A stretch of 58,759 bases of DNA, taken from assembly GCA_028703835.1 (NCBI GenBank), contig JAQVMB010000008.1, positions 1-58,759 on the forward strand, in the 5' to 3' direction. The first letter of the stretch is position 1. Each line of letters begins with the position of its first letter. Below, one piece after another: positions 26,351-57,366 of this stretch. The translations under genes were made by a program, and so were the position numbers. This DNA comes from Candidatus Peribacteraceae bacterium (GTDB lineage: Bacteria; Patescibacteriota; Gracilibacteria; Peribacterales; Peribacteraceae). A model generated the notes under the pieces. The model saw only the letters and a program-made list of their open reading frames with translations, had not been told where the DNA came from and searched no databases.

Positions 26351-26917
26351 ATGTATACGATCACCGACCTCAAGCCCGGCCGTGCCGTCACCCTGGACGG
26401 GCAACCCTTTCTCGTCGTCGCATCGCAATTCGGCCGCAAGAGCCAGAGCAAGGCGAACATGCAGTGCAAGCTGAAGAACTTGAAGACCGGCGCCGTCATC
26501 GCGCGCAACTTCCAGGGATCGGAGAAGATCGAGGAAGCGGACGTAGGCTACCAGCGCGTGCAGTTCCTCTACGGGGACGATGAGCAGGGCTACACCTTCA
26601 TGAACCTCTCGACCTATGACCAGTTCCCGCTGACGGCGGAGACGCTGGAGTCTTCGAAAGGCTACCTCACCGAAGGGCTGGAGTGCGACGCCCTGATGTT
26701 CGAGGACAACCCGATCGGCATCAACATCCCGTCCACGGTCGTCCTGACGGTGCAGGAGACGATTCCGGGCGTGAAGGGCGATACTGCCACGGGCGGCTCG
26801 AAGCCGGCGACCATGAACACGGGCATCTCCGTCAACGTCCCGCTCTTCGTCAACGAGGGCGACAAGGTCCGCGTGAACACGGAGACGGGGGAGTATATGG
26901 AGAGGGCGAATGATTGA
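26351..26917 (+). CDS. efp: Elongation factor P
   Basis: EF-P relieves ribosome stalling at polyproline. All three beta domains are present (188 residues): MYTITDLKPGRAVTLDGQPF, the loop of domain 1, then GYTFMNLSTYDQF and PGVKGDTATGGSKPATMNTG...VPLFVNEGDKVRVNTETGEY. Aligned without gaps to E. coli EF-P, the tip residue that is usually a modified Lys or Arg is Gln32, in the sequence GRKSQSKANMQ. The last 45 bp recur exactly at 27532-27576, with a toxin-antitoxin pair between. Confidence 0.95.
   Translation: MYTITDLKPGRAVTLDGQPFLVVASQFGRKSQSKANMQCKLKNLKTGAVIARNFQGSEKIEEADVGYQRVQFLYGDDEQGYTFMNLSTYDQFPLTAETLESSKGYLTEGLECDALMFEDNPIGINIPSTVVLTVQETIPGVKGDTATGGSKPATMNTGISVNVPLFVNEGDKVRVNTETGEYMERAND
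26873..26917 (+). repeat. Direct repeat, copy 1 (3' end of efp)
   Basis: The last 45 bp of efp, including its stop codon, are identical to 27532-27576. The copies bracket a 614-bp insert that holds the toxin-antitoxin pair. This looks like an attachment-site duplication. Confidence 0.85.
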
Positions 26918-26962: not shown

Positions 26963-27241
26963 TTATGCGATTCTTTGGGTGGTTTGTCTGTAGACAACCG
27001 ATCGGTGCGCGATGAGAAAAATGATCACTTGCCTTTTTTCGATACGGAAAATTACGCGGTAATCTCCCACATGCAAGCGTCTGTAGCCATTCAATGACCG
27101 TCGCAATGGCTTTCCGAATGTTTCCGGCTCCTTTGTCAGTTTCTTCTCAATAGCCGCCTTGATGCGCGATTTTTCCGCTTTCGGCAGGGAGGGGATGTCT
27201 TCGCTGACAACCTTTGCGTGATACGTGAGCACGAAACTCAT
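26963..27241 (-). CDS. RelE/ParE-superfamily toxin
   Basis: The 92-residue protein has the RelE-fold pattern: SFVLTYHAKVVSEDIPSLPK, then KEPETFGKPLRRSLNGYRRLHVGDYRVIFRIEKRQVIIFLIAHR. The conserved basic LHVGDYRVIF strand is intact. RelE-type toxins cut mRNA in the ribosome; ParE types poison gyrase. Which applies here cannot be told. It overlaps its antitoxin gene by ATGA and lies in an insert between two copies of the efp 3' end. Confidence 0.88.
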   Translation of the reverse strand: MSFVLTYHAKVVSEDIPSLPKAEKSRIKAAIEKKLTKEPETFGKPLRRSLNGYRRLHVGDYRVIFRIEKRQVIIFLIAHRSVVYRQTTQRIA

Positions 27242-27459
27242 AACCAGGCTTTCTTATGAGAAACGAATGTCGCATCGGATGTGTCCCGCGCAGCGGCGAT
27301 GGCATTAAGCACATCATCCTCTTCGATTTCTATTGCCAGCTTGATCAAATGCAATGCTTTTGTCGCCTGCGGCACATCATCACGTTCGGCCAGGACATTC
27401 AGTGCCTGTTCCACATCTTCCGGCAAGCTCACATTGATCCGCTTTTTCAGCGTAGGCAT
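27238..27459 (-). CDS. Ribbon-helix-helix antitoxin
   Basis: The 73-residue protein begins MPTLKKRINVSLPEDVEQALNVLAERDD, an N-terminal beta strand and two helices of an RHH DNA-binding domain. The C-terminal region (VLNAIAAARDTSDATFVSHKKAWL) would wrap the toxin. It precedes and overlaps the toxin gene, the usual order. Its promoter carries a palindrome that it probably binds for autorepression. Confidence 0.85.
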   Translation of the reverse strand: MPTLKKRINVSLPEDVEQALNVLAERDDVPQATKALHLIKLAIEIEEDDVLNAIAAARDTSDATFVSHKKAWL

Positions 27460-27475: not shown

Positions 27476-27511
27476 CACTTAAAGTGTAACACCAGTACAT
27501 CACCTGTGCAA
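27476..27511 (-). promoter_or_regulatory. Toxin-antitoxin promoter and likely operator
   Basis: On the minus strand TTGCAC (27511-27506), a 17-bp spacer and TACACT (27488-27483) form a good promoter. The palindrome CACTTAAAGTG (27476-27486) overlaps the -10, where an RHH antitoxin could block polymerase. Confidence 0.65.
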
Positions 27512-27531
27512 GGGGGGCGAACAAAGTCTGT

Positions 27532-27576
27532 GTGAACACGGAGACGGGGGAGTATATGGAGAGGGCGAATGATTGA
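27532..27576 (+). repeat. Direct repeat, copy 2 (displaced efp 3' end)
   Basis: The 45 bp are identical to the end of efp. The 20 bp before it still resemble efp but with changes and one extra base (AACAAAGTCTGTGTG against GACAAGGTCCGCGTG), so it is a remnant gene tail and not a gene. Confidence 0.85.
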
Positions 27577-37300: not shown

Positions 37301-39924
37301 GATGTGTCCGAGAAATCAGGCAGGAAGGTATCGTTCGCATCCAGCGGCAGCGTGAGGGAGAGGGCTTTGGCGGTCCCTGCCCCGCGGTTTTCCACCGTCG
37401 TTTTCAGCTGAGCGGTCCCTCCGACAAATACTTGATCCGTTCCGGTGATCGACACGGCGAGGAGGCTCTCCTTCTCACAGCGAGAGGTGCAGCTGTCGCC
37501 ATTCGTCGCGTTGCCATCGTCACACTCCTCTCCCGTTCCCACGAACCCGTCTCCGCACATTGCCTTCTTGCACGTGTTGATGCAGGTGTCTGTATCGATC
37601 CTGTTCCCATCGTCACATTCTTCCCCCTGCTGCACGAGACCGTCTCCGCATACTGCTGTCTTGCAGCCATTCGAGCAGCCGTCCCCGTTCGTCGCATTCC
37701 CATCGTCACATTCTTCCCCTTTCTCCTTGATCCCATTGCCGCACAAGACGGTCTGACATTCGCTGGAACAGCCATCTCCATCCACGAGGTTCCCGTCATC
37801 GCAGCCTTCTCCGGCTTCCGTGAGGCCATTCCCGCAGACCGGGTTCCTGCACTCGTTGCTGCAAGCATCGCTCGCGACTCTATTCCCATCGTCACATTCT
37901 TCCCCGCTCTGCGTGAATCCGTCGCCGCACATGGCTTTCTTGCATGCATTCGAGCAGGTGTCGCCATTCTCGGCATTTCCGTCATCACATTCTTCGGTGC
38001 CTTGCATGATGCCGTCGCCGCACCTGGCTATCTTGCAGGCATTCGAGCAGGTGTCATCATTCGTGTTGTTCCCATCATCGCATTCCTCGTCCTGTTGCAC
38101 GATGGCATCCCCGCAGCGGGGGAGTCCGCAGGCATTCGTGCATCCGTCTGCATTCTCCATATTGCCGTCGTCGCAGGCTTCGCCGGGTTGAACGATGTTG
38201 TCGCCGCACATCGCCTTTTTGCATGCGTTCGTGCAGGTATCTTCGTTTTGGGTATTCCCATCGTCACATTCTTCCCCGCTCTGCGTGAATCCGTCGCCGC
38301 ACATGGCTTTCTTGCATGCATTCGAGCAGGTGTCGCCATTCTCGGCATTTCCGTCATCACATTCTTCGGTGCCTTGCATGATGCCGTCGCCGCATTTCGT
38401 GATCTTGCATGTAGTCGAGCAGCTGTCAGTTGCCACATCATTTCCATCATCACATTCTTCCCCGTTTTGCGTGAACCCGTCGCCGCAACGGGCTGACTTG
38501 CACATATTTGTGCATGCATCGTCGTTCTCGAAATTCTTGTCATCGCACTCTTCCATTCCTTCTTTCACGCCGTCGCCGCAGCGGATGGTCTTGCAGGATG
38601 CCGAGCAGGTCGTAGAGGAAAGGTTTCCTTCATCACATTCTTCTTCGTTCTGCATGAATCCGTCACCACATACTGCAATTTTGCAGGCATTGGTGCAGGT
38701 GTCTCTGTTCTCGACATTCCCGTCATCGCATTCCTCGGCTCCCTGGCGGAGGCCGTCGCCGCACCTGGGCAGCTTGCAGGAAGCGGTGCAGGCATCGCCG
38801 TTTCCGCCATCGCATTCTTCTCCGCTTTGTACAAAGCCGTCTCCGCAGGAGGCATTTCTGCAGGAAGCGGTACAGTCGTCCGTGTCATTCTTGTTTCCGT
38901 CATCGCACTCTTCTCCGTTCTGCAAGAATCCGTCGCCGCACGTGGCGTTCTTGCATGCGCTCGTGCACGCATCGCCATCCTCGGCATTTCCGTCGTCGCA
39001 CTCTTCTCCGCTCTGTACGAATCCATCGCCGCAGACCCCCTTCTTGCAAGAGGTGGTGCAGCCGTCCTCATTGACGGTGTTTTTGTCATCACATTCCTCC
39101 GCTCCCTGACGAATCCCGTCGCCGCAGGCAGGCAGTGAACACAGGTTCGTACAGCCGTCCTCGTCCGCCTGGTTTCCGTCGTCGCATTCCTCGGCACCCT
39201 GCTTCATCCCGTTTCCGCAAACTGCGTTCTTGCACGTATTGGAGCAGATATCGTCATTGACCGCATTCCCGTCATCACATTCCTCTTCGGCATCTATGGT
39301 TCCATTCCCGCAGGCAATGGCGGGTTGAGCGGCGCAGAAGGCGGGGAACAGAAGCAGATCCACGTTGTCCCGGAGGGAGGGATCCGCCGTCAGGCCCGTC
39401 GCGTATCCCCACAGCATAAGGGAAACAGGGCAGCTGTCGCTATCTTCCACAACCAACAGAAAAGGAATGGTGATTTCTTCCTTTTCAGCCATTTCGGGGA
39501 GTTGGCACGAGAGGGCGTTCTCATACCCTTGGGGTTGGGTACACGATGGAAGGAGTGGGAGGATGGACAATCCCTTCCCCTTGCTCCCGTAGAGAATGAG
39601 GGTGACTTTTTCCGCGGGGTTCGGTCCTCTGTTGCTTACCGTGACGGAGAGTATGGAACCAGTATTGACCGTCACGCTTCCCAGAGGCGCAAAATGAATG
39701 TTTAAGTCTGCCTCCTTTTTGCATTTCGTGGAGCAGCCGTCCCCGTTTGTTTGATTCCCGTCATCACACTGTTCCTGGGCTTCGACTGTTCGGTTCCCGC
39801 AAATGCCAGCCGAAGATGCTGCAAAAGAATCCGCCGTCGGCTGCGCGGCGAAAGCGAAAAGAAAGGAGACAGTGCTTATCAGAAGAAGCGGAGCAGCGGG
39901 AAGCTGCAGAGGAAAAAGACGCAT
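31318..39924 (-). CDS. Giant secreted protein: Cys-rich repeats, subtilase, beta-helix (2868 residues)
   Basis: A signal peptide (MRLFPLQLPAAPLLLISTV..., about residues 1-30) is followed by a region with 23 copies of a Cys-rich DUF4215-like repeat of about 31 residues (pattern CGDGxxQxGEECDDGNxxNxDxCxxxC). Copy 1 is at about 41, copies 2-21 at about 205-820 and copies 22-23 at about 940-1005. DUF11/CARDB-like domains sit at about 72-200 and 820-940. A Pro-rich linker leads to an S8 subtilisin domain with the complete triad: Asp in VVATIDTGFD (~1200), His in VGHGTAVGS (~1253) and Ser in GTDGTSVAAPQVS (~1439). Several Ig-like domains follow. The last ~370 residues contain GLUG-type repeats (VGGVIGD, VGGLIGH, AGGLVGF, VGGIIGN). 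There is no LPXTG motif or C-terminal membrane anchor. The repeats are Asp/Glu-rich and probably bind Ca2+. A role as a surface protease/adhesin is inferred. The nearby DsbA-like protein could oxidise its many cysteines. Confidence 0.88.
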   Translation of the reverse strand: MRLFPLQLPAAPLLLISTVSFLFAFAAQPTADSFAASSAGICGNRTVEAQEQCDDGNQTNGDGCSTKCKKEADLNIHFAPLGSVTVNTGSILSVTVSNRGPNPAEKVTLILYGSKGKGLSILPLLPSCTQPQGYENALSCQLPEMAEKEEITIPFLLVVEDSDSCPVSLMLWGYATGLTADPSLRDNVDLLLFPAFCAAQPAIACGNGTIDAEEECDDGNAVNDDICSNTCKNAVCGNGMKQGAEECDDGNQADEDGCTNLCSLPACGDGIRQGAEECDDKNTVNEDGCTTSCKKGVCGDGFVQSGEECDDGNAEDGDACTSACKNATCGDGFLQNGEECDDGNKNDTDDCTASCRNASCGDGFVQSGEECDGGNGDACTASCKLPRCGDGLRQGAEECDDGNVENRDTCTNACKIAVCGDGFMQNEEECDEGNLSSTTCSASCKTIRCGDGVKEGMEECDDKNFENDDACTNMCKSARCGDGFTQNGEECDDGNDVATDSCSTTCKITKCGDGIMQGTEECDDGNAENGDTCSNACKKAMCGDGFTQSGEECDDGNTQNEDTCTNACKKAMCGDNIVQPGEACDDGNMENADGCTNACGLPRCGDAIVQQDEECDDGNNTNDDTCSNACKIARCGDGIMQGTEECDDGNAENGDTCSNACKKAMCGDGFTQSGEECDDGNRVASDACSNECRNPVCGNGLTEAGEGCDDGNLVDGDGCSSECQTVLCGNGIKEKGEECDDGNATNGDGCSNGCKTAVCGDGLVQQGEECDDGNRIDTDTCINTCKKAMCGDGFVGTGEECDDGNATNGDSCTSRCEKESLLAVSITGTDQVFVGGTAQLKTTVENRGAGTAKALSLTLPLDANDTFLPDFSDTSCSPIVGSPAATCAVGDLPGGGTKTILLSLRTSSIVRNGTYGASIVTSSPTASGTVLASPAHLLSVISCGNGVVDAGEDCDDGNTVNTDTCTNKCGAAACGDGYVQAEEECDDGNATNDDGCSSLCTMEAGADTQVSPFAKQPLAIPDEQLQTTSPLALGRLWNGLKDWTASLIADATGQSDDSPPPPPATATAKKIVPGSLPLLITVDDRCRRTRMKDGQNMFFDGYLPAPPPAPSKATMMEDAVYDLHLNFNTPYDDLWKHVKEDSCIIGITVPGEEDVRSEAVSSSSVAPSFAYLDATHYTQARSFFQNALASDRKGKVVVATIDTGFDLNNPATPELSPNLEGSNRTAAQFCHKAKKEDCPTDEAPDDPQDAVGHGTAVGSLITMGQGSKVQGLASVNAVLLPIKIARNATDMQKLRTSDLFEAIKHAVNAGADVINISMAEYDRDLCNPVIGHAIYKALENNVFFVFSAGNGIKVDENGQNIPGRLIWPSDDRPAVYGNTVAPACWGRYFQGAVTVGGLETGADRLYRFSNYGDAVELLAPATNIASYGLGNAVAGTDGTSVAAPQVSAAAALVIGYFKQHNWYYDSWLIEDVLENAARKVPALEKKVRKGRVLDFQQLAEYLHSLDGMTDDQRRRIPSDNPRASEGWKPDEDVSPSDRLIIQPDKAGLFPGETTMFHAVLLAKDGTTKNVTMDAFWTTQDDLLLPIAPNGQVTLTANAESLKNLQRLRIIGHYEEFDASFNLAIRKAATPDEFVSEGLSMIKPGTDPEEENGSAEKPFKATWGKAGFSFQLVETFRNETTDFVVDYTPEASWTTDIPSEFSLIPPLHGFFSTVDAYGGKRYTVTATVDGHAVSAVIEVQKAEPGTCLGREENGPSCILNPLGKSVFRGQTLTLQSLINVQGESVDRPARATWTSLSNDLTLQLQDSKETKIQTASLTPGTYTVQATVPFRGQGKDETFTSVLPFTVTENFDRVELMTKKPLLNFQSRALFVLRRYDEGNSFTVIPPADVTWQTSDPVRLPIDEQGIVYPSRQSLTANGNAQTYTVSARLNGQTKTTPIRIVPFDTQTGQTDQLEYIEITGIPSSSWGNNRCTYKLPDLRPAPQFMIWQGASKDSSTGLFIIGHESNGRICNLSSEASLSIDNPKMIANNGLGIWASPFVLPMNEKPGFSATITSLYGRGLKAQISVTVPKYPLLGIRFSAETAPPQGYQTATNFPEPIEADTNGVFSVARDYTPLKPFIINVFPELNIFDPIQGGDYWAPIRHHDFTNAMGPLTEWTSENSTMTSVLQAMKADDKEAWTKRGSLLPIPIVTGNEWQEKALFPDTTIPLAYRSVYRGNGEDQAIEKQVTLHIQAPVVSPALLDFDPGIYKEIWPEKNSYLAPSNIYEGYFVRGMTSDDLKELQVNIQSTRTDKGIGWGQQGFPHFFSVWGDAHYDEVLNITVTNPKLQKQHQGTTHLIPGIADYSPAGPFPLPGETLPPPKANDPRCDDPALTSSGSFAGGQGTEGDPFLVCTPDQLRNAAENAYKFIQRQSRGGLSNMYVPDAGFPAYCADFDNLTKDEKLHCGRDQFRLIANLDFIAISNMSPIDLGGSLDGNGYEIRNPTVVDSLDSKVGLFHRGHNGYSFPGLSPLWSIRNLILRNPTIRGKTAVGGVIGDTEVAGAGLLMENVHVIDGQIWGMKAVGGLIGHTQWKMLHISNCSVRNTLISIEQQEAGGLVGFSEGPIRIEDSLSTAQLGSAGVQGGQKYVGGIIGNNAQSLNLINPLDDGMQENKVGLIRSLFRGTITLGHSANGSFVGGLVGGSNALPIIGSRAEADIAATGRGVGGLIGSWYCINRSTLPCVISHSSFKGTVWGGADRDGASAAGGLVGSMGKGIIVDSVVESGSVIKGISKIGGLVGSASPYTRFYRNAVKAEVGSSQGDAAGFIGALDYEWKLPYQFGDDYVPAPYLSGNTWLQSLAPAAADVGSWESDRTGIRKTERNLDLEGIDAQL
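37881..38022 (-). repeat. Recent internal duplication, copy A
   Basis: About 142 bp are, by eye, identical to 38253-38394, offset by 372 bp (four 31-codon repeats). This indicates recent unequal recombination among the Cys-rich repeats. Confidence 0.8.
38253..38394 (-). repeat. Recent internal duplication, copy B
   Basis: This is the partner of 37881-38022. Repeat units further away are clearly diverged, so this exact identity is recent or maintained by gene conversion. Confidence 0.8.
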
Positions 39925-55325: not shown

Positions 55326-55350
55326 CCGGCGACCCTGAGCGAGTCGAAGG

Positions 55351-55374
55351 GTGGCGCTGTTGCAGAGGAAGTAG
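55351..55374 (+). pseudogene. Displaced copy of the rlmD 3' end
   Basis: The 24 nt read VALLQRK-stop, the same as the real end of rlmD, but almost every codon differs at the third base (GTG GCG CTG TTG CAG AGG AAG TAG against GTC GCC CTC CTC CAA AGG AAA TAA). Between the two lies CCCTGAGCGAGTCGAAGGG. Confidence 0.8.
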
Positions 55375-55375
55375 T

Positions 55376-55409
55376 CGGAGGGCAGGAAAGGCAGGAGGGG
55401 CAGGAAGGT
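55376..55409. repeat. GGGCAGGAAAGGCAGGA repeats, left flank of the four-helix gene
   Basis: Purine-rich units here are the inverted complement of TTTCTGCCTTTCCTGCCC units at 55802-55845. Together they flank the gene at 55414-55776. Confidence 0.65.
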
Positions 55410-55413
55410 TTGT

Positions 55414-55776
55414 TTACGGAATTTGCATCAAGCGCGTGAGGAGATAGCTTAATCGCGCACAATGGTCGATGCATGCCGTTGCATCTTCTTCGCTTACCAG
55501 ACCCAGTTCCGCACTCAGATCGATAAAATTGTCCACCTCGACTGTGGAACCCCGGGCGCGCTGATAGTAGGCGTTACGGTGTGCTTGGGAACGCATGGCT
55601 GATCCTTCGGCAATATTTGCCATCACTGAACTTGCGGCGCGGCGCAGTTGTGATCTGAGATTGAATTGTGCATCTGGTGGAAATAGTTTTGTAATTTTGT
55701 AGACGTTCAATGTCAATTTCTTTGCTTCTTGCCATACGATGAGATTCCGAAAACCGGTGTCCATTTGTCGTTGCAT
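55414..55776 (-). CDS. Four-helix-bundle protein (rRNA IVS-type family)
   Basis: The 120-residue protein fits TIGR02436: FRNLIVWQEAKKLTLNVYKITKLFP, LRSQLRRAASSVMANIAEGSAMRS, YYQRARGSTVEVDNFIDLSAELGLVSEED, then a last helix. The family is known from 23S rRNA intervening sequences and scattered single genes; its function is unknown (related proteins form pentamers or bind nucleic acid). TACTAT is 6 nt before ATG 55776. It is flanked by inverted purine-rich repeats and lies just after the rlmD tail duplication, suggesting arrival with mobile DNA. Confidence 0.87.
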   Translation of the reverse strand: MQRQMDTGFRNLIVWQEAKKLTLNVYKITKLFPPDAQFNLRSQLRRAASSVMANIAEGSAMRSQAHRNAYYQRARGSTVEVDNFIDLSAELGLVSEEDATACIDHCARLSYLLTRLMQIP

Positions 55777-55801
55777 GTTGCGATAGTAATCCAACGGAAC
55801 T

Positions 55802-55845
55802 TTTCTGCCTTTCCTGCCCTTTCTTACCTTTCTGCCCTCCCCCAG
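55802..55845. repeat. TTTCTGCCTTTCCTGCCC repeats, right flank of the four-helix gene
   Basis: This is the inverted counterpart of 55376-55409. Related units lie at 13707-13733 and 27606-27655. Confidence 0.65.
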
Positions 55846-55894
55846 AAGGCTGCAAGGGTTACACAAAAAAGAGGTTCCACGCTACCATGGAACC

Positions 55895-56359
55895 ATGCAC
55901 CGCATCACTCTCCTCTGCGTCGGGAAGATCTCCAGCGACTGGATCGCCGAGGGATGCCGTGACTATTTGTCTCGCCTCAAGCGCGATGCGCTGGTGGATG
56001 TCCACGAGGTGGGCGCGAGTAAGGAGAAAGACGCCGAGCGGCAGAAGAAGGACGAATCGCTGCGGCTCCTCTCGGCCATGGCGAAGCATGAGGGCGATTC
56101 CATCGTGCTGGACGAGACGGGGGAGCGGATGACGTCCGCCCAGTTCGCGAAGTTCCTGCAGTCCGTCTTCGACGCGGGAACCCCGGCGGAGTTCGTCATC
56201 GGCGGCGCCTACGGGCTTACCGATGAGGTGCGGAGGGGCGCGAAGAAAACGATCCGCCTCTCGGACATGACCTTCACGCATGAGATGGCGCGCCTTGTGT
56301 TCCTCGAGCAGTTATACCGTTCTGTTCAGATAACAAAAGGGACTGGATACCATCATTGA
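55895..56359 (+). CDS. rlmH: 23S rRNA (pseudouridine1915-N3)-methyltransferase RlmH
   Basis: This SPOUT enzyme methylates pseudouridine 1915 in the A-site helix. The 154-residue protein starts MHRITLLCVGKISSDWIAEGCRDYLSRL and has SIVLDETGERMTSAQFAKFL, FVIGGAYGLTDEVRRGAK, LSDMTFTHEMARLVFLEQLYR and the end VQITKGTGYHH. The last ~16 codons (from 56312) are A/T-rich (TTA TAC CGT TCT GTT CAG ATA ACA AAA), unlike the rest of the gene. A GC-rich copy of the same end lies at 56385. The functional gene seems to carry an imported tail. Confidence 0.95.
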   Translation: MHRITLLCVGKISSDWIAEGCRDYLSRLKRDALVDVHEVGASKEKDAERQKKDESLRLLSAMAKHEGDSIVLDETGERMTSAQFAKFLQSVFDAGTPAEFVIGGAYGLTDEVRRGAKKTIRLSDMTFTHEMARLVFLEQLYRSVQITKGTGYHH

Positions 56360-56384
56360 ACTGTCACCCTGAGCCTGTCGAAGG

Positions 56385-56435
56385 GAGCTCTACCGCGCGG
56401 TGCAGATCGGGAAGGGGACGGGATACCACCACTGA
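56385..56435 (+). pseudogene. Displaced native-like copy of the rlmH 3' end
   Basis: The 17 codons read ELYRAVQIGKGTGYHH-stop, matching the RlmH end (Q)LYRSVQITKGTGYHH, but with the GC-rich codons usual for this genome. A CCCTGAGCCTGTCGAAGGG element separates it from the working stop codon. Confidence 0.85.
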
Positions 56436-56445
56436 GCGGCACGGT

Positions 56446-56754
56446 TCAGCGTGACGCCGCTTTTTTCGTCGTCACGTGTCCCCCCTCGATCCGGATCGCT
56501 TTCCCGTTGAGGAGCGCGTCGGCGGTTTTCCTGTTCGCGGCGGTGAGGATGCGCTGGAACGTGCTCTGCGACACGCCCATGCTTTTCGCGGCTTCCGTTT
56601 GGTCCATCGCTTCCAGGTTCTTCAGGCGCAGCGCCTCCACTTCGTCCAGCGTGAGGACCACCTGTTCCAATGCGCGCAGCGGTATGCCCCGCGGCTTGTA
56701 GTAATACGCTCCGGGTTCCGCGCCGATGCACCGTGGTTTGAGGGGGCGAACCAT
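56446..56754 (-). CDS. DUF134 family protein
   Basis: The 102-residue protein matches PF02001: MVRPLKPRCIG, YYKPRGIPLRALEQVVLTLDEVEALRLKNLEAMDQTEAAKSMGVSQSTFQRILTAANRKTADALLNGKAIRIEGG. It has a sigma-70 region 4-like helix-turn-helix and probably binds DNA. Genes of this family are often beside DUF5320 and dinitrogenase-FeMo-cofactor-type proteins. The start MVRPLK fits the family; ATG 56811 is a longer option overlapping the DUF5320 stop. The pair lies between copies of the rlmH tail. Confidence 0.9.
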   Translation of the reverse strand: MVRPLKPRCIGAEPGAYYYKPRGIPLRALEQVVLTLDEVEALRLKNLEAMDQTEAAKSMGVSQSTFQRILTAANRKTADALLNGKAIRIEGGHVTTKKAASR

Positions 56755-56807
56755 GGGGACAGGATACCCGAAGATGTGCCGTTCGGGATGGCGGGGAAAG
56801 GGGAGTA

Positions 56808-57062
56808 TCACTTGTCGCCGAGTTCCTTCCGGCGCGCCCGGAGGTCCTCGAGATACTGCGAGGCGGCCTGCACCTCTTCGTCGAGCATGGCCCGTTCGTC
56901 CGCCGCCGTGATGCGCGGGCGGGTGAACGGGAAGAATCCGCAGAAGCCCCGGCCGAAGCCGAATCCTCGGCCCATTCCGCGCCCGTTTCCGGCGCAGCAG
57001 CCTCTGCCTCGGCCTGTCATGGCGCCCCGGCCCATGGGGCCCGTACCGTCGAATGCCGGCAT
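56808..57062 (-). CDS. DUF5320 family Gly-rich protein
   Basis: The 84-residue protein starts MPAFDGTGPMGRGAMTGRGRGCC, the DUF5320 signature, with a Gly/Arg/Phe-rich middle and a helical C-terminus (DERAMLDEEVQAASQYLEDLRARRKELGDK). Function is unknown; it typically occurs with DUF134 and metal-cofactor proteins. The AT-rich stretch 57080-57110 upstream probably holds its promoter. Confidence 0.88.
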   Translation of the reverse strand: MPAFDGTGPMGRGAMTGRGRGCCAGNGRGMGRGFGFGRGFCGFFPFTRPRITAADERAMLDEEVQAASQYLEDLRARRKELGDK

Positions 57063-57159
57063 GATATGAGGGGGAAAGAAATGAAACATAATGAATATAT
57101 ATTCATAAATAATGACGGTCAAGCATTTCGGACGGATATTCCCGCCATTGATTCCCATG

Positions 57160-57210
57160 CAGTCCCGCCGCGCGGTGCGGATCGGGAAGGGGGCGGGATA
57201 CCATCAATAA
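57160..57210 (+). pseudogene. Third copy of the rlmH 3' end
   Basis: The 17 codons read QSRRAVRIGKGAGYHQ-stop. From 57168 on it is nearly identical in DNA to 56393-56427 (CCGCGCGGTGC, GATCGGGAAGGGG and CGGGATACCA shared). Copies 2 and 3 bracket the DUF134-DUF5320 pair as direct repeats. Confidence 0.85.
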
Positions 57211-57291: not shown

Positions 57292-57366
57292 GGCCTCATC
57301 GTCTAACGGTTAGGACACGGGATTCTCATTCCCGTAATCGGGGTTCGATTCCCCGTGAGGCTGCCA
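57292..57366 (+). tRNA. tRNA-Glu (anticodon CTC)
   Basis: The acceptor arms GGCCTCA and TGAGGCT pair (one G-T). The anticodon stem CGGGA/TCCCG holds the loop TTCTCAT, giving anticodon CTC. The T arm has GGTTCGATTCC with 5-bp stem. Discriminator G and CCA are encoded. It lies just before the AT-rich rmuC, a common place for islands to begin. Confidence 0.96.

What the first reader, a model, noticed from the sequence alone, without database searches (positions are those of the whole stretch)
56306..57210. Three copies of the rlmH 3' end, two bracketing a DUF134-DUF5320 cassette
Seen: RlmH ends ...QLYRSVQITKGTGYHH-stop at 56359 in A/T-rich codons. A GC-rich copy (ELYRAVQIGKGTGYHH-stop) lies at 56385-56435 and a third (QSRRAVRIGKGAGYHQ-stop) at 57160-57210. 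Copies 2 and 3 are direct repeats around two small genes. The codon switch inside rlmH at about 56312 suggests the working tail was imported and the native tail displaced. Known: in staphylococci the rlmH (orfX) 3' end is the attB site of SCC elements. Inference: rlmH is an independent integration site in this CPR-like genome, with cassette-sized cargo and no recombinase left beside it.
Basis: partly seen in the sequence, partly recalled or inferred. Interest (0 to 1): 0.92.

Follow-up and report, generated by a model that had tools for sequence, protein, structure and literature searches.

The report
Gene insertions that carry spare gene-ends
In this tiny-genome bacterium (Candidatus Peregrinibacteria), foreign DNA has twice been inserted into the last 50 bases of the rlmH gene, each time leaving a whole rlmH in front and the old end stranded behind; the same pattern at efp in the same window, and at aspS, an acyl-CoA synthetase gene and rlmH in relatives, suggests a general way of adding genes without breaking the host gene.

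Summary
In detail: three copies of the rlmH 3' end (56312-56359, 56386-56435, 57160-57210), the last two around DUF134-DUF5320. Congeners have a single tail, and in two of them rlmH is followed by the same tRNA-Glu(CTC), so 56360-57210 is inserted and copy 3 is the original end. The working tail is imported: GC3 is 0.29 against 0.87 in the gene body, and its closest DNA is from AT-rich relatives (genus g17). Among 57 family rlmH loci only three have extra tails (this genome, G077, G081), with unrelated cargo; a fourth case (G242) lies in another family.

rlmH is not the only target. In the same window efp (26351-26917) has a ParE/RHH toxin-antitoxin pair between its 3' end and a displaced 67-bp copy. 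In G077 a homologous DUF5320-DUF134 cassette sits the same way at aspS; G030 shows it at an acyl-CoA synthetase gene. Differences between functional and displaced tails are mostly synonymous at G030 and at G077 rlmH, so those tails came from related genes.

Best reading: repeated additive integration of DNA carrying its own copy of the host gene's 3' end through one crossover, SCC-like in outcome. No insert contains a recombinase gene; a dedicated rlmH recombinase is neither found nor excluded.

The parts
55895..56359 (+). rlmH (SPOUT methyltransferase), functional, hybrid gene
   Evidence: Pfam PF02590 E=3.3e-44; GC-rich body, AT-rich tail
56309..56359 (+). tail 1: imported working 3' end; switch between CAG (56309-56311) and TTA (56312)
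   Evidence: GC3 0.29 vs 0.87; best DNA matches are genus g17 tails (42/51, 40/51)
56360..56385 (+). 26-bp remnant between tails 1 and 2; 56366-56385 is a dispersed palindrome ACCCTGAGCNNGTCGAAGGG (10 places in the genome, 0 for the reversed control)
56386..56435 (+). tail 2: native-type rlmH 3' end, displaced by the later event
   Evidence: peptide AVQIGKGTGYH shared with the C6 pseudogene
56446..56811 (-). DUF134 (HTH) gene, cargo
   Evidence: PF02001 E=4e-24; present in 12 of 74 family genomes, absent from the three congeners
56808..57062 (-). DUF5320 gene, cargo (conserved start about 57062; longest ORF runs to 57158)
   Evidence: PF17253 E=4e-18
57089..57108 (.). palindrome TATGAATATATATTCATTA before DUF5320; in 1.92 Mb of fetched DNA found only in fragments that hold DUF134 loci
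57160..57210 (+). tail 3: original rlmH 3' end, decayed, next to the native downstream flank
   Evidence: congeners have rlmH-tRNA-Glu adjacency
57292..57366 (+). tRNA-Glu(CTC), ancestral neighbour of rlmH
   Evidence: same neighbour in G001, G002, G006, G079
26351..26917 (+). efp (elongation factor P): second host gene with a displaced 3' end in this window
   Evidence: PF09285/PF01132/PF08207
26963..27459 (-). ParE toxin (26963-27241) and RHH antitoxin (27238-27459) inserted behind efp
   Evidence: PF05016 E=8e-9; PF07878 E=2e-5, just below its cut-off
27509..27576 (+). displaced copy of the efp 3' end (67 bp, 91%; last 38 bp identical)

Best explanation
The rlmH locus records two successive additive integrations of foreign DNA. 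Each incoming piece carried its own version of the end of rlmH followed by cargo, and joined the chromosome by one crossover inside the last ~50 bp of rlmH (codons 136-138). The result is a complete hybrid rlmH in front, the cargo, and the recipient's old tail stranded behind. Event 1 put the DUF5320-DUF134 operon between tail 2 and the original tail 3. Event 2 put in an AT-rich tail from a g17-like relative; only 26 bp of its cargo side remain. Shown: insertion relative to congeners, displaced tails, imported tail 1, recurrence at rlmH in three genera and a second family, and the same architecture at efp, aspS and an acyl-CoA synthetase gene. Inferred: that the incoming DNA was circular or recircularised, that the crossover was made by general recombination or end-joining rather than a dedicated enzyme, and that the rest of event 2's cargo was lost.
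For: Empty sites: G001 and G002 have one rlmH tail followed by tRNA-Glu(CTC), G003 one tail. Tail 1 foreign. Extra tails in 3 of 57 family loci with scores 63, 22 and 17; the other loci reach at most 15, strand controls at most 17. Independent cargo: NYN gene and a small Gly/His-rich gene in G077, a 187-aa gene in G081 where congeners end in HHA* and abut an ATPase gene, an M3 peptidase in G242 whose ORF runs out into the displaced tail. Same architecture at efp, aspS (71 bp, 96%) and an acyl-CoA synthetase gene (69 bp). Codon differences between functional and displaced tails: 7 of 8 synonymous (acyl-CoA synthetase), 8 of 9 (rlmH G077), 8 of 11 (tail 1 vs tail 2), against about 0.23 expected for random changes. 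DUF134 is sporadic and lies near dnaG, rpsE or thiol-disulfide genes elsewhere. Precedent: in an E. coli conjugation test most recombinants carried a partial duplication from one crossover with a recircularised molecule (PMC3240628); Saccharibacteria are naturally competent and com genes are conserved across CPR (PMC10633639).
Against: Tails 1 and 2 share only 36 of 51 bases, little for RecA-type recombination, and three boundaries in this genome coincide at codons 136-138, as a site-specific enzyme would give. No circular form or donor molecule was found; viral, phage and plasmid collections hold no isolated tail. The automated scan gave 34 3'-anchored against 30 5'-anchored hits, most in repeat-rich proteins, so a preference for 3' ends rests on manual inspection. 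All genomes used are assemblies; G081 breaks at the repeat.
Confidence: 0.58

Rival explanations
1. SCC/ECC-like site-specific integration: an unknown recombinase acts at the rlmH 3' end; the inserts are recombinase-less remnants (pseudo-SCC) of larger elements.
For: rlmH is a Ccr target in staphylococci and Enterococcus (ECC att repeats about 50 bp, several attR per locus; PMC6222049), with related islands at rlmH listed for further Gram-positive genera (PMC10581047) and ccr-less psi-SCC regions cut by tail repeats (PMC4723332). Copies 2, 3 and the tail 1 switch share one start (codon 137). Recurrence at rlmH in 4 genomes. Large serine recombinases occur in 55 of 74 family genomes. The MQKI gene found in only four genomes is near rlmH or an rlmH fragment in each.
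Against: No recombinase in any insert. The four recombinases inspected lie at or near tRNA-Glu (G006, G081, G002) or, in the own genome, on another contig (C32); none is at the rlmH tail. Repeat starts vary (about codon 119 to 147). The same architecture at efp, aspS and acyl-CoA synthetase genes. SCC core TATCATAA absent from the window tails.
Confidence: 0.3
2. Local duplication: cargo entered next to rlmH by any route and the tail was duplicated from the same genome, as in a long target-site duplication or template switching.
For: aspS and G242 rlmH repeats are 95-96% identical; tails 2, 3 and the C6 pseudogene are of one lineage.
Against: Tail 1 is compositionally foreign; nearly synonymous-only divergence at the G030 and G077 rlmH loci means both copies evolved as coding sequence in different genomes.
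Confidence: 0.1
3. Chance or a conserved RNA/protein feature.
For: None found; Rfam was not searched.
Against: Expected matches 0.00; 75 rlmH loci from other phyla give best scores of 17 or less, none anchored at the gene end.
Confidence: 0.02

Closest known systems
Staphylococcal / Enterococcus cassette chromosome (SCC, ECC; pseudo-SCC)
   Same: Insertion inside the 3' end of rlmH, rlmH kept whole, cargo bounded by direct repeats of the rlmH tail, nested insertions, ccr-less versions known
   Different: No Ccr or other recombinase; 0.03-2 kb instead of tens of kb; att core not conserved; same pattern at other genes
Genomic islands that regenerate a target gene end (Islander principle, tRNA/tmRNA islands)
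   Same: Regenerated target in front, displaced fragment behind, fragment marks the end of the insert
   Different: Protein-coding hosts, no integrase, single-gene or operon cargo
Single-crossover (Campbell-type) integration of recircularised DNA, with homology-facilitated illegitimate recombination (HFIR) as its linear-DNA relative
   Same: Insert flanked by a partial duplication of the homologous locus, variable length, no recombinase
   Different: Here in wild Patescibacteria MAGs, often with the homologous piece from another species, and at gene 3' ends in the cases checked by hand

Membership tests
SCC/ECC cassette chromosome | Integration at the 3' end of rlmH with the gene kept functional | tested here: met
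SCC/ECC cassette chromosome | Element bounded by direct repeats of the rlmH tail | tested here: met
SCC/ECC cassette chromosome | ccr serine recombinase in the element | tested here: not met
   Only DUF134 and DUF5320 genes in the insert; nearest own large serine recombinase on another contig, C32
SCC/ECC cassette chromosome | Conserved att core (TATCATAA) | tested here: not met
   Tails read TACCATCATTGA, TACCACCACTGA, TACCATCAATAA
Integrase-type genomic island | Regenerated target plus displaced fragment | tested here: met
Integrase-type genomic island | Integrase gene inside the island | tested here: not met
Single-crossover additive integration | Insert flanked by partial duplication of the homologous locus | tested here: met
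Single-crossover additive integration | Incoming homologous segment from another strain or species | tested here: met
   Tail 1 composition; synonymous divergence at other loci
Single-crossover additive integration | Enough shared identity for RecA at the crossover | tested here: inconclusive
   36/51 between tails 1 and 2, 41/51 between tails 2 and 3
Single-crossover additive integration | Circular or linear intermediate in cells | not testable with these tools
   No reads available

The most novel reading that the evidence does not exclude
Gracilibacteria/Peregrinibacteria use small mobile cassettes that each carry the replacement 3' end of a particular housekeeping gene (rlmH, efp, aspS, acyl-CoA synthetase), so genes can be added in compact genomes without harm to the host gene, by a recombinase acting in trans or by plain homologous exchange between species.
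Probability: 0.3. Interest if true: 0.8.

Novelty: new variant of a known kind. Interest (0 to 1): 0.55.

Why it matters
How ultra-small Patescibacteria gain genes despite packed genomes is little understood. Displaced gene-ends are footprints that date, bound and order such gains, and point to donors (tail 1 to g17-like relatives). They make the route testable: circular or linear DNA, enzyme or plain recombination. They also show rlmH as a recurrent insertion site outside the Gram-positive bacteria for which cassette chromosomes are described in the papers read.

Tried and rejected
Isolated rlmH tails on viral contigs: none; phage and plasmid hits span most of the 34-aa query at under 80% identity and look like ordinary rlmH genes, several annotated so. 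Two weaker own-genome DNA hits (C10, C24) read as chance. A serine recombinase next to rlmH in G002 and G006: these elements sit at or near tRNA-Glu, not the rlmH tail. dnaG in G080 and G082 and rpsE in G035, next to DUF134: no displaced tail. Extension of copy 3 upstream of codon 137: none. rlmH tails in 75 loci of other phyla: no duplication. Class-wide second matches were mostly chance hits in unrelated ORFs; only G242 held up. C36 and C38 repeats in the own genome are palindromic intergenic repeats, not gene ends. The own genome was scanned for about 1.05 of 1.34 Mb.

Full report
Observation. RlmH runs 55895-56359 and ends in AT-rich codons from 56312; GC-rich copies of its 3' end stand at 56386-56435 and 57160-57210, with DUF134 and DUF5320 on the minus strand between them. 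The two GC-rich tails match a 38-base pattern exactly, expected 0.00. The gene body has GC3 0.87 and the last 17 codons 0.29; no other rlmH among about 50 relatives shows such a step.

Organism and history. The held genome (1.34 Mb, 40 contigs) falls in a genus whose other members include Candidatus Peregrinibacteria MAGs from 'AlinenLipids' samples. Congeners G001 and G002 have rlmH followed by tRNA-Glu(CTC), as have G006 and G079 of other genera, and a single tail; G003 also has one tail. Tail 3 stands before the tRNA-Glu promoter and gene at 57292, so it is the original end and everything between the rlmH body and tail 3 is added. Tail 2 keeps the native peptide (AVQIGKGTGYH, shared with an rlmH pseudogene on C6), so it was working until recently; tail 3 has decayed (6 of 8 codon differences change the residue). 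Tail 1 resembles tails of the AT-rich genus g17 (42/51 and 40/51 bases). Hence two events: first DUF5320-DUF134 with tail 2, then tail 1 with a 26-bp remnant that holds a dispersed palindrome.

Recurrence at rlmH. Of 57 rlmH loci of the family, three have a second tail downstream: this genome, G077 and G081. G077 has two extra tails around an NYN gene and a Gly/His-rich gene. In G081 a 187-aa gene stands between the working tail (ends HH*) and an 18-bp copy in the native HHA* form; four congeners end HHA*, and rlmH there abuts the gene that in G081 lies behind the tail on C14, an ATPase gene by eye (the contig breaks there, so this case is weaker). In another family of the class, G242 has a 63-bp copy, 60 identical, behind an M3 peptidase gene whose reading frame ends inside the displaced tail. 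The small MQKI gene was found in only four genomes and each time near rlmH or an rlmH fragment. Seventy-five rlmH loci of other phyla show nothing like it.

Not only rlmH. In this same window efp ends at 26917; its last 67 bp recur at 27509-27576, and between them lie a ParE toxin and an RHH antitoxin gene. In G077 a homologous DUF5320-DUF134 cassette, with the same palindromic site before it, lies between aspS and a 71-bp copy of the aspS 3' end. In G030 an acyl-CoA synthetase gene has a 69-bp copy behind a 0.4-kb insert. A weaker case is a flavin-reductase-like gene on C13 (32 bp). The automated count of 3'-anchored and 5'-anchored repeats was similar (34 and 30) because repeat-rich proteins dominate both lists; the statement that single-copy cases lie at 3' ends is from manual inspection.

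Where the tails come from. Between working and displaced tails, codon differences are 7 synonymous to 1 at G030, 8 to 1 at G077 rlmH and 8 to 3 for tail 1 against tail 2; random changes would give about 23% synonymous. Both copies therefore most likely evolved as coding ends of the same gene in different genomes, so the incoming DNA brought a relative's gene end. At aspS and G242 the copies are nearly identical, so there the source was the same or a very close genome.

Mechanism. An insert with the donor's tail in front and the recipient's tail behind is the product of one crossover between the chromosome and a circle carrying [gene end + cargo]. In E. coli a test for homology-facilitated illegitimate recombination gave mostly such products, 109-950 bp duplications from recircularised DNA (PMC3240628). 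CPR bacteria conserve com genes and one group is transformable (PMC10633639). Against plain homologous exchange: tails 1 and 2 share 36 of 51 bases, and three boundaries in this genome fall at codons 136-138. These favour a site-specific enzyme for rlmH, as in SCC and ECC (PMC6222049, PMC4723332, PMC10581047), but no insert has a recombinase, the SCC core is absent, and the four large serine recombinases inspected sit at or near tRNA-Glu or on another contig. [quoted passage not shown] I put general tail-carrying integration first (0.58) and a dedicated rlmH system second (0.30).

Cargo. DUF134 (HTH) and DUF5320 form an operon behind the palindrome TATGAATATATATTCATTA; in 1.92 Mb this palindrome was found only in fragments holding DUF134 loci, so autoregulation by DUF134 is a fair inference. 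The pair is in 12 of 74 family genomes (scored by DUF134), absent from the congeners, and beside different genes in different genera.

Noticed in passing
G000 C6:40343-40600 (L031 5343-5600, minus): An rlmH pseudogene (about residues 64-153), with the MQKI gene and a GIY-YIG gene nearby, both seen near rlmH in other genera.
   Followed up: partly
window 55377-55866; L137 7660-8300; L061 10440-10900: A 23S-intervening-sequence (S23/IVP) protein gene just upstream of rlmH in three genera. In the window it lies between inverted repeats 55377-55406 and 55811-55840 (16 bases perfect); purine/pyrimidine-rich inverted repeats seem to flank it in the other two as well (read by eye).
   Followed up: partly
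L062 10334-11968, L135 6223-7833, G000 C32 14539-16164: Large serine recombinase genes whose 3' ends overlap tRNA-Glu in antisense (G006, G081); the C32 protein ends in a tRNA-antisense-like peptide (RLDSNQRP). Suggests serine-recombinase elements at tRNA genes.
   Followed up: partly
G000 genome, 10 places (window 55332-55351, 56366-56385): Dispersed palindrome ACCCTGAGCNNGTCGAAGGG, 10 copies, none for the reversed control.
   Followed up: no
L240, L241, L242, L243, L239, window 57089-57108: Palindrome TATGAATATATATTCATTA confined to DNA fragments that hold DUF134 loci; likely operator.
   Followed up: partly
window 37470-39320: Array of diverged repeats with a 93-base period in a coding region.
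   Followed up: no
L239 (G096 C35:22751 and 29590): DUF134 gene about 6.7 kb downstream of rlmH, same strand, without a second tail.
   Followed up: no
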